From contig CAIIXF020000006.1 in NCBI GenBank assembly GCA_903813345.2, positions 28,713,936 to 28,777,935 on the forward strand: a DNA stretch of 64,000 nt, read 5' to 3'. Made by a program: the position numbers and the translations under genes. Every line of letters starts with the position of its first letter. The first letter of the stretch is position 1. The stretch comes from Owenia fusiformis. Taxonomy: Eukaryota > Annelida > Polychaeta > Sabellida > Oweniidae. The notes under the pieces were generated by a model. It worked only from the letters and a program-made list of their open reading frames with translations, was not told the origin of the DNA and did not search any database. Positions 24,401 through 27,400 of this stretch are shown one piece after another.

Positions 24401-27400
24401 ACAGCCTAGTTCCCACATCCCTTGTTGACTTTGCTTCCATATTTCCTGTGAAGCCGTGGAACAGTTCTCTTGTTCTTCACAATTTTCCATTTTAATGTAA
24501 CTCAATGAATAAGGCCAATTCATATCACTGGCTTCCCTAGGTCATTTGAATTCCTTGCAATTTTTAAATCAGCAATAAAGAATAATGGGTTAAATTATCA
24601 AATAATGAAAAAGTTGCAAATTATGAGATTTGTTATATAGCTTCGAAATCTTGCTGAAGTGTAGTTTAACTATAGGTTAAGAGGCTAAATTCTCATTGAG
24701 ATAATTTTAAAGAATCTTAAACATTGACTTATTGTTTCAGTGGTCCTATTAAAGTTCATGTGTACACAATCTGAACAACATCCAGTTTCAAACACTTCTG
24801 ATTATCATCAAGTTTCAAACACAATCTGAACATCATCAAATTCAATGCAAATGCAGTTTTACTTTAATCCAACAGAACGAATATGGTAAATCAATAAACT
24901 AAGTGACACATGTCAAGTCAATGGTAAATACTTGTATCTAGCCCAACTAGCACAAGTGCTGCCATCTACCGACTAGTATCAATCCATCTATCCATATACA
25001 TAGCACCTAATGAGGTCACGACTTCAAGTAAAGCTTTTTCCCTTGTCTATGGTAAAAAATAAGTTAAACAGAAAAGTTAGTTTGACACCATTGGTGATGC
25101 CCACCTTGTATGGTATAGGGATAAAAGGAAAGTTCATGATAACACTTACATAAAATAATTTAAGTAACTAATAATGATAATGAACATATTACAATGTTAC
25201 ACAATGTTAGTAAATGATAATTAAATGTCAATTATTGTTAGTGTAATATGTATTTTTTGCTTAATGCTGCAACAATTACACAAGTTCCAAAAAGTGCCAC
25301 GCCCACTTTTCCCTAAAAGTAGTTGTGTGTGACTATATTTGATGGATATTATTGATTTATTGGAGCATTATATCAACTTTTTAGTGCTTTAGTGTGAATA
25401 TATACATATTTATACAACTTTTGACAAAGTTGCAGCCACAAAATCCAAACAAATTTGCAAATATTTCACTTTGCGGGCTAAGGGACATATTTTGGAGGAG
25501 GTCAAATTGAGAAGATTTTGAGATATAAATACTGTTTCCATGGTAACCATATAAGTTAAAAATTGGACATTTCTGGCACTGACTAACCATGGTATGCTCT
25601 GCCTACTATAAAACTATGAATATATGACATGCATTAGTATTCTTTTTATCAGGTGGTATTAAAGTACCCCCAAGGTTTTCTTAGGGTGGGGGTATGAATT
25701 GGCCTGAGGGCCGTCTGCCACCCCTACATGAAGTCCAACTACCCAGAAAGTGCCTAGCATAATCATACAGACTGTTTGAAATATGTTGGAATGTGTGACC
25801 TTCCATGAAAAATGGAAGTTGCAATTATCAGAGTAGTCCACAGTCTACTACATAACAATCGGAGACAGAAGTCTAAATATTGTCCAATAAAATATAAAGA
25901 ATCTAACATTTAATGATAACAAAAGGATTAATTGCTATATAGTTCTCTTTGTCTTAGTCTTTGTTTTCTTAACTGCGGAAGTGTACCAACATCACCTAGA
26001 TTACATAAGAGATCATCTAACAGTCTAAAATTGCAAGTTAAAGTATTCTGACCAAAAGTTGCATACCTGTAATTTGGGGGGGGGGGGGCGATGTACCATC
26101 ACATAACTACAACATTCATATAGAAATATATTGTAAGCATGTCCGTATAAAAGCTAAAATGATAAAAACTCATTTCAAAATCATTCTGTTCATGGAAGCG
26201 TCAAGTTATGAAAAACAATGCTAAACACTAAAATAAACAAATCGACTTGATTACTTTTGAAAACTTCATGAGAGGAGATGGACAAATGTATTTTTCTAAC
26301 GCATTAGAACGTCTGTCTGATTGAAATACTATTTTTTTTATTACACCATCGGTGGGATATAGTCATCATACTGGTCGTGGTCGTGATCGTGATCGTCCCG
26401 CTTTTTGTCATCGCCGTTTAAGGAAAACTGCTCATCAGATTTTCTCCAAATTTGCAGAGATGATAGAGCATATGAAGTACTAGAGCTGATTAACTTATGG
26501 GTGGCCATCTTGTTTTCTGGCGGCCATTTTGAAGGTTTTTCGAAAAATCTTGTCATCGCCATTTTAGGAAAACCGCTCATTGGATTTCCTTCAAATTTAC
26601 ACAAATGATAGAGGATATCAAGTACTAGAGCTGATTAACTTTTGGGCGGCAATCTTGTTTTCTGGCAGCCATTTTGAAGATTTTTCGAAAAATCTTGTCA
26701 TTGCCATTTCAGAAAATCCGCTCATCGGATTTCCTTCAAAGGACGATTCTCGGTTTGGAGAACGAAGTTCATCAATCTAAATGAGCATTATCCCTGCTTC
26801 GGACAAATTTGATTTTTTTACATAATATAGATTTGAATGTCTTCTTTTGAATAGTCATAATTTAATTTGGGTAATATTTCTAGATTTTTCTCAAAAAAAT
26901 ATTAGCGCAGTACACTGATGAACTTCTTTCCCCAAATAGAGACTTGTATTTTATTAAAATCGGTAAAATTGAGCGTTATCCCTGCTCCAGACTTTGATAT
27001 TTTTACATCTTGTAGATTTAAATGTCCTCTTTTGAATATTCATAGTTTAATTTGGGTAATATTTCTATATTTTTCATGCAAAAAAATATTAGCCCAGGAG
27101 ACTGTTCTCCAAACCGAGAATCGTCCTTTACACACATGATAGAGGATATCAAGTACTAGAGCTGATTAACTTTTGGGCGGCCATCTTGTTTTCTGGTGAC
27201 CATTTTGAAGATTTTTGAAAAATCTTGTCATCGCCATTTCAGGAAAACCGCCTTGTTAAGTACAAACATAAATGAATAAATCTTGGTCAGAAGTCTGAAC
27301 ATTGTCCAACAAAATAATAAGAATCTAACATATGACGATAACAAAAGGATTATTTGCTATATTGTCTTTGTCTTAGTCTTTGTTTTTTCTAACGGCGGAA

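What the first reader, a model, noticed from the sequence alone, without database searches (positions are those of the whole stretch)
26741..27126. Seamless AAA|TTT insertion without target duplication (Spy-like MITE)
A 386-bp element with 23-bp perfect inverted termini interrupts a tandem unit. The neighbouring intact unit reads CCTTCAAATTTACAC, and the flanks read CCTTCAAA and TTTACAC, so nothing was duplicated. Insertion exactly between AAA and TTT without a duplication is the defining behaviour described for Spy transposons. An in-situ empty site makes this unusually clear.
Basis: partly seen in the sequence, partly recalled or inferred. Interest (0 to 1): 0.72.

Follow-up and report, generated by a model that had tools for sequence, protein, structure and literature searches.

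The report
Small transposon inserted without target duplication
A 386-base mobile DNA element has dropped cleanly between AAA and TTT in a tandem repeat of what looks like an animal genome without copying any target bases, which is how the known Spy transposons insert, so it is most likely an ordinary small Spy-type passenger element with an unusually clear empty site next door.

Summary
A 386-bp element at 26741-27126 has 23-bp perfect terminal inverted repeats and no ORF of 90 aa. It splits the third unit of a 145-bp tandem array. Without it the flanks read CCTTCAAATTTACAC, as in the neighbouring unit, and only one gap placement fits. The junctions, AAA|GGACG...CGTCC|TTT, carry no direct repeat. 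In paralogous units without the insertion the homologous six bases are AAATTT in 8 of 9; the ninth reads AAGTTT. So AAATTT was most simply there first. Only 92 AAATTT sites lie in the 64 kb.

AAA|TTT insertion without duplication is the published Spy signature (PMC4482050, PMC11304231). ISL2EU, PIF/Harbinger and Pangu leave duplications; Helitron ends differ. One addition: the element is a tandem dimer (inner repeats 84% identical) with a decayed end buried at the junction.

Family membership could not be tested. No genome is held, the window has one copy, and 40 of 40 ORFs of 90 aa or more gave no transposase. I file it as a probable new non-autonomous Spy-group element, confidence 0.78, interest modest.

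The parts
26741..27126 (.). whole element, 386 bp, 31% GC, no ORF of 90 aa or more inside
26741..26763 (+). left terminal inverted repeat, 23 bp, GGACGATTCTCGGTTTGGAGAAC
27104..27126 (-). right terminal inverted repeat, 23 of 23 identical to the left one
26738..26740 (.). left target half AAA (host)
   Evidence: present in the empty units
27127..27129 (.). right target half TTT (host)
   Evidence: present in the empty units
26779..26917 (+). inner repeat, copy 1 (of a tandem dimer)
   Evidence: 84.4% identical to copy 2 over 141 aligned columns, E 4e-34
26967..27104 (+). inner repeat, copy 2
26911..26952 (-). decayed end buried at the dimer junction; its reverse complement matches the real left end plus AAA at 32 of 42 positions, ungapped
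26405..26549 (+). tandem unit 1, empty site AAATTT at 26448
26550..26694 (+). tandem unit 2, empty site CCTTCAAATTTACAC
26695..26740 (+). tandem unit 3, part left of the insertion (89.1% to unit 2)
27127..27224 (+). tandem unit 3, part right of the insertion (93.9% to unit 2)
47380..48463 (+). related 162-bp array and its last divergent copy; homologous empty sites AAATTT in 6 of 7 units, AAGTTT in 1

Best explanation
The element is a non-autonomous (MITE-type) DNA transposon of the Spy group of the PHIS superfamily, or something that uses the same chemistry. A transposase encoded elsewhere in the genome bound the 23-bp inverted ends, cut the element out with both strands cut flush, and joined it to a non-staggered (blunt) cut in the centre of a palindromic AAATTT in the third unit of a 145-bp tandem array. 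Because the target cut has no overhang, there is no gap to fill and no target duplication. Shown here: anatomy, target sequence, absence of duplication, likely polarity of the event (insertion into an existing AAATTT), single occurrence in the window. Taken from the Spy literature: AAA|TTT target, no duplication, blunt cutting. Inferred: a Spy transposase as the agent and its presence elsewhere in the genome. Also inferred: the element began as a tandem dimer of a unit of about 190 bp; the outer ends stayed intact, as expected if only they are used, while the ends at the inner junction decayed.
For: Perfect 23-bp TIRs at the exact insertion limits. Unique gap placement and no junction repeat. 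Eight of 9 paralogous empty sites read AAATTT, from two arrays. The base rate of AAATTT is 92 in 64,000, so a random no-duplication insertion would land there about once in 700. Spy is described as inserting within AAATTT without duplication, in invertebrates, with TIRs of 5 to 691 bp; insertions of a Spy element in human cells gave no duplication. The same paper states blunt breaks at both ends and insertion at non-staggered positions. The TIR starts with GG, as is usual in ISL2EU, the sister group of Spy; this is weak, since Pangu, NuwaI and NuwaII often start so too. The outer ends are conserved 23 of 23 against 84% for the inner repeats and 32 of 42 for the buried end, which fits use by a transposase.
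Against: Only one insertion is available, and one AAATTT match could be luck. No transposase or autonomous partner was seen. The TIR sequence was compared with no published Spy end: the TIR logos are in figures, which are not held, the original Spy paper was not opened (an identifier that I recalled for it, 10.1093/gbe/evu140, is not held), and the 13-base start of the TIR occurs in no paper of the library. The host is not identified, so I cannot say that it belongs to a phylum known to carry Spy.
Confidence: 0.78

Rival explanations
1. It is a PHIS relative that makes duplications (ISL2EU with AT, PIF/Harbinger with TWA, Pangu with ANT), or another cut-and-paste element, whose duplication was later lost by small deletions at the junctions.
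For: ISL2EU TIRs usually start with GG and its target A|AT|T is contained in AAATTT. Small junction deletions do occur in old insertions (general knowledge).
Against: An AT duplication in AAATTT would leave AAAT|element|ATTT; the sequence has AAA|element|TTT. Losing it needs two matched single-base deletions that restore exactly AAA and TTT and leave both TIR ends intact. The junction otherwise equals the empty unit 2 (37 of 38 bases).
Confidence: 0.09
2. It is a different, non-PHIS kind of TIR element that also inserts bluntly, with AAATTT met by chance or by convergent preference.
For: No enzyme is known for this element; only one site was seen.
Against: Chance of AAATTT at a random position is 0.14%. 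The passages read name Helitrons and Spy as the exceptions to the rule of duplications (for the rule).
Confidence: 0.07
3. A Helitron-type rolling-circle element, which inserts between A and T without duplication.
For: The insertion point is A|T and there is no duplication. A|T steps are 10.8% of the window, so this target match costs little.
Against: Helitron ends recalled from general knowledge (5'-TC, 3'-CTRR with a preceding hairpin, no long TIRs) are absent. This element starts GGACGA, ends TCGTCC and has perfect 23-bp TIRs at both limits.
Confidence: 0.03
4. Not a transposition at all: a foldback fragment captured at a double-strand break by end joining, or an assembly artefact.
For: End joining can insert DNA without duplication (general knowledge).
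Against: The insertion limits coincide to the base with both TIR ends, and against unit 2 no base at the junction was lost or added. End capture would not be expected to do that.
Confidence: 0.03

Closest known systems
Spy transposons (PHIS superfamily), autonomous elements
   Same: Insertion between AAA and TTT, no target duplication, TIRs within the reported length range
   Different: 386 bp with no ORF of 90 aa, against 1165-5910 bp with one ORF for intact Spy elements; internal tandem dimer; no transposase found
ISL2EU (sister group of Spy)
   Same: AT-rich palindromic target (A|AT|T), TIRs usually starting GG
   Different: ISL2EU makes an AT duplication; none here
PIF/Harbinger, Pangu, NuwaI, NuwaII
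   Same: TIR elements of the same superfamily
   Different: Duplications TWA, ANT, CWG, and TNA or CTNAG; none here
Helitrons
   Same: No duplication, A|T insertion point (recalled)
   Different: Here perfect TIRs and GGAC...GTCC ends instead of TC...CTRR (recalled)

Membership tests
Spy | No target site duplication | tested here: met
   Left flank ends A, right begins T; longest junction direct repeat 0; joined flanks equal empty unit 2 in 37 of 38 bases, one gap placement
Spy | Insertion between AAA and TTT of an AAATTT target | tested here: met
   One insertion; 8 of 9 paralogous empty sites AAATTT, 1 of 9 AAGTTT
Spy | Terminal inverted repeats (5-691 bp reported) | tested here: met
   23 of 23 bp
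Spy | Most copies of the family behave the same way | not testable with these tools
   No genome held; one copy in the window
Spy | Single-ORF DDE transposase of the Spy clade in an autonomous partner with the same ends | tested here: inconclusive
   No transposase family among 40 of 40 listed stop-to-stop ORFs of 90 aa or more in the window; shorter ORFs and the rest of the genome not scanned
Spy | TIR sequence like that of published Spy families | not tested
   Published logos are figures, not held; no Spy sequence was available
ISL2EU | AT duplication | tested here: not met
PIF/Harbinger and Pangu | TWA or ANT duplication | tested here: not met
Helitron | 5'-TC and 3'-CTRR ends (recalled) | tested here: not met
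   Ends GGACGA and TCGTCC

The most novel reading that the evidence does not exclude
A transposase lineage that is not Spy has independently evolved blunt, duplication-free insertion into AAATTT, or a Spy lineage lives in an animal phylum outside the three reported (arthropods, cnidarians, molluscs), with a dimeric MITE as its passenger. Host and enzyme are unknown, so neither is excluded.
Probability: 0.12. Interest if true: 0.5.

Novelty: new member of a known kind. Interest (0 to 1): 0.27.

Why it matters
Spy elements insert with no duplication, and one from the insect Colletes gigas is proposed as a gene-transfer tool (PMC11304231). The PHIS survey searched by transposase and says that non-autonomous members such as MITEs may have been missed. 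An element caught in a tandem array, with empty sister units beside it, gives direct evidence of duplication-free insertion. It also supplies a 23-bp end sequence with which to look for copies and for the enzyme. It adds a case, not a new principle.

Tried and rejected
Other copies. The 23-mer gave nothing more in the window at 3 mismatches. BLAST of the whole element against the window gave its own internal repeats and weak matches, the best outside the element being 35 aligned columns, E 0.004. Viral contigs: no exact match to the 23-mer or to a 22-base inner piece; one match to a 16-base piece of AAA plus TIR (L003). Bacterial and archaeal genomes: two matches to an 18-base piece (L001, L002). 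In these three loci (55-61% GC) the best-matching place has 19, 21 and 15 of 23 TIR bases, and the best place on the opposite strand 15, 16 and 14 of 23, so there is no inverted partner (for L003; stretches read). I take all three as chance. Pieces of two host tandem repeats gave nothing in viral contigs, so the host was not identified.

Other AAA|TTT elements in the window. A scan for 15-nt inverted ends (13 or more matching) flanked by AAA/TTT gave 90 pairs, and 26 after asking that complementarity stop outside; 8 of 8 first-order Markov controls gave 0, but such controls hold no tandem repeats. Of the 26, 23 lie in or beside tandem arrays (8.6-12.9 kb, 43-44 kb, 50.3-50.6 kb), one (21952) lies inside a longer inverted repeat, one is the element itself, and one, 32460-32894, is a possible element of unclear limits. 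This is no clear support for a second Spy-type copy. The list of 275 exact inverted repeats was cut in the middle of its output.

Enzyme. 40 of 40 ORFs of 90 aa or more listed were scanned with Pfam at E 0.1; no transposase. There were weak matches below the curated cut-offs, among them a phage-integrase SAM-like domain (E 0.038, ORF 33430-33804, inside a tandem array), which I disregard. tRNA (bacterial settings) and Rfam scans were empty.

Palindrome idea. The left half compared with its own reverse complement scores 78, against a best of 68 in 300 mononucleotide shuffles; the right half scores 40. Beyond the buried end the long-palindrome reading is weak, so I kept the tandem-dimer reading. 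The whole element as single-stranded DNA folds better than its shuffles (z -7.4, 0 of 100 as good), with the paired TIRs as its base.

Dropped rows. A weak unit match at 48700-48860 (c2) did not align convincingly and was left out of the 9 empty sites; the truncated fourth unit (27225-27251) ends before the site.

Full report
What is there. Positions 26741-27126 hold a 386-bp segment whose first and last 23 bases are perfectly complementary. The perfect inverted repeat is 26 nt if the flanking AAA and TTT are counted. The 23-mer occurs nowhere else in the window at up to 3 mismatches, and 100 shuffles give none. The segment lies in the third unit of a 145-bp tandem array (units at 26405, 26550 and 26695) and contains no ORF of 90 aa or more. 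Its GC content is 31%.

No duplication. The left flank ends CCTTCAAA and the right begins TTTACACACATG. The longest direct repeat at the junction is 0, whatever the empty site was. Joining the flanks in a script gives GATTTCCTTCAAATTTACACACATGATAG..., which differs from unit 2 in one base over the 38 printed; the 386-bp gap fits in one place only.

Polarity. Is AAATTT the old state, or a scar? The same six bases were read in the other units. Unit 1 has AAATTT by pairwise alignment (128 of 145 identical) and unit 2 has it directly. In the related 162-bp array 21 kb away, six of seven units have AAATTT and one AAGTTT: five of six regular units (identity to unit 2 from 74 of 108 to 78 of 108) and the last, divergent one (57 of 74) (multiple alignment). 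So 8 of 9 empty paralogues carry AAATTT, and insertion into an existing AAATTT is the simplest account. The more distant array is only about 70% alike and its units are not independent of each other, so this is in effect two or three independent witnesses. The opposite polarity (loss from all other units leaving AAATTT) is not excluded but needs many events.

How surprising is the target? AAATTT occurs 92 times in 64,000 bases, 0.14% of positions. A random duplication-free insertion would meet it about once in 700. That is one event; it is suggestive, not conclusive.

Inner structure. Copies at 26779-26917 and 26967-27104 are 84% identical, so the element is a tandem dimer. At the end of the first copy, 26911-26952 in reverse complement matches the real left end together with its AAA at 32 of 42 positions without gaps, and a direct alignment of the halves puts this stretch opposite the real right end, with a 10-base gap. 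By eye the second copy lacks a recognisable left end. My reading (inference): two head-to-tail copies, of which only the outermost ends remained in use.

Mechanism. The PHIS papers say that Spy elements insert within AAATTT without duplication. They report TIRs of 5 to 691 bp and a distribution in arthropods, cnidarians and molluscs, about 60% of insertions of one Spy element in human cells at AAWTT with no duplication, and blunt breaks at both ends with insertion at non-staggered positions. The element here behaves in this way. ISL2EU, PIF/Harbinger, Pangu and Nuwa elements leave duplications, which are absent. Helitrons also leave none, but their ends (recalled) differ from GGACGA...TCGTCC with 23-bp TIRs. 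As a contrast inside the window, four other TIR structures that I picked by eye do show direct repeats at their limits: 2154-2652 with ATTGTATTG (9), 54868-56819 with TTATT (5), 28294-28746 and 35194-37943 with ATA (3 each; a 3-base match in AT-rich DNA is weak). Duplications can therefore be seen in this sequence where they exist.

What is not shown. 40 of 40 listed ORFs of 90 aa or more gave no transposase in Pfam. The original Spy paper was not opened: an identifier recalled for it is not held. Of PMC4482050 I read parts 1-3 of 4, of PMC11304231 two sections and passages, of PMC8616336 and PMC10294476 passages only. That the host is an animal is my inference from its genes (TFIIH p62 exons, a DUF268 protein, an FkbM methyltransferase) and its repeat-rich make-up; its phylum is unknown to me.

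Verdict. A search of the paper library for the 13-base start of the TIR found nothing, which says little, as sequences of this kind are usually in databases and supplements.

Noticed in passing
21610-22294 and 25127-25811: Inverted repeat with 685-nt arms, 91% complementary, 2.8 kb apart: a large foldback or a long-TIR element.
   Followed up: no
35194-37943: 2.75-kb structure with 71-nt perfect inverted ends starting CACTA and ATA on both sides: looks like a CACTA/EnSpm-type element (label recalled).
   Followed up: no
54868-56819: 1.95-kb structure with 67-nt perfect inverted ends starting CACTG and TTATT on both sides.
   Followed up: no
2154-2652: 499-bp structure with 33-nt perfect inverted ends and a 9-bp direct repeat ATTGTATTG on both sides; the inside, near 2460-2500 on the minus strand, resembles a tRNA-type B box by eye.
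   Followed up: partly
28294-28746: 453-bp element-like inverted repeat, ends ACACTGGTGATCC, ATA on both sides.
   Followed up: no
32460-32894: Possible second element with AAA/TTT near its ends (13 of 15 inverted bases, unclear limits).
   Followed up: partly
26405-27251 and 47380-48463: A 145-bp and a 162-bp tandem array are related to each other (about 70% in the aligned part).
   Followed up: partly
7562-7996: Tandem duplication of 241 bp, 1.8 copies, 100% identical: very recent, or an assembly effect.
   Followed up: no
38298-39290 and 49043-49963, minus strand: Long single-exon-like ORFs: a DUF268 protein (E 5.6e-40) and an FkbM methyltransferase-domain protein (E 3.3e-14).
   Followed up: no
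3143-6273, plus strand: Pieces of a TFIIH p62 homologue (PH_TFIIH and BSD domain matches).
   Followed up: no
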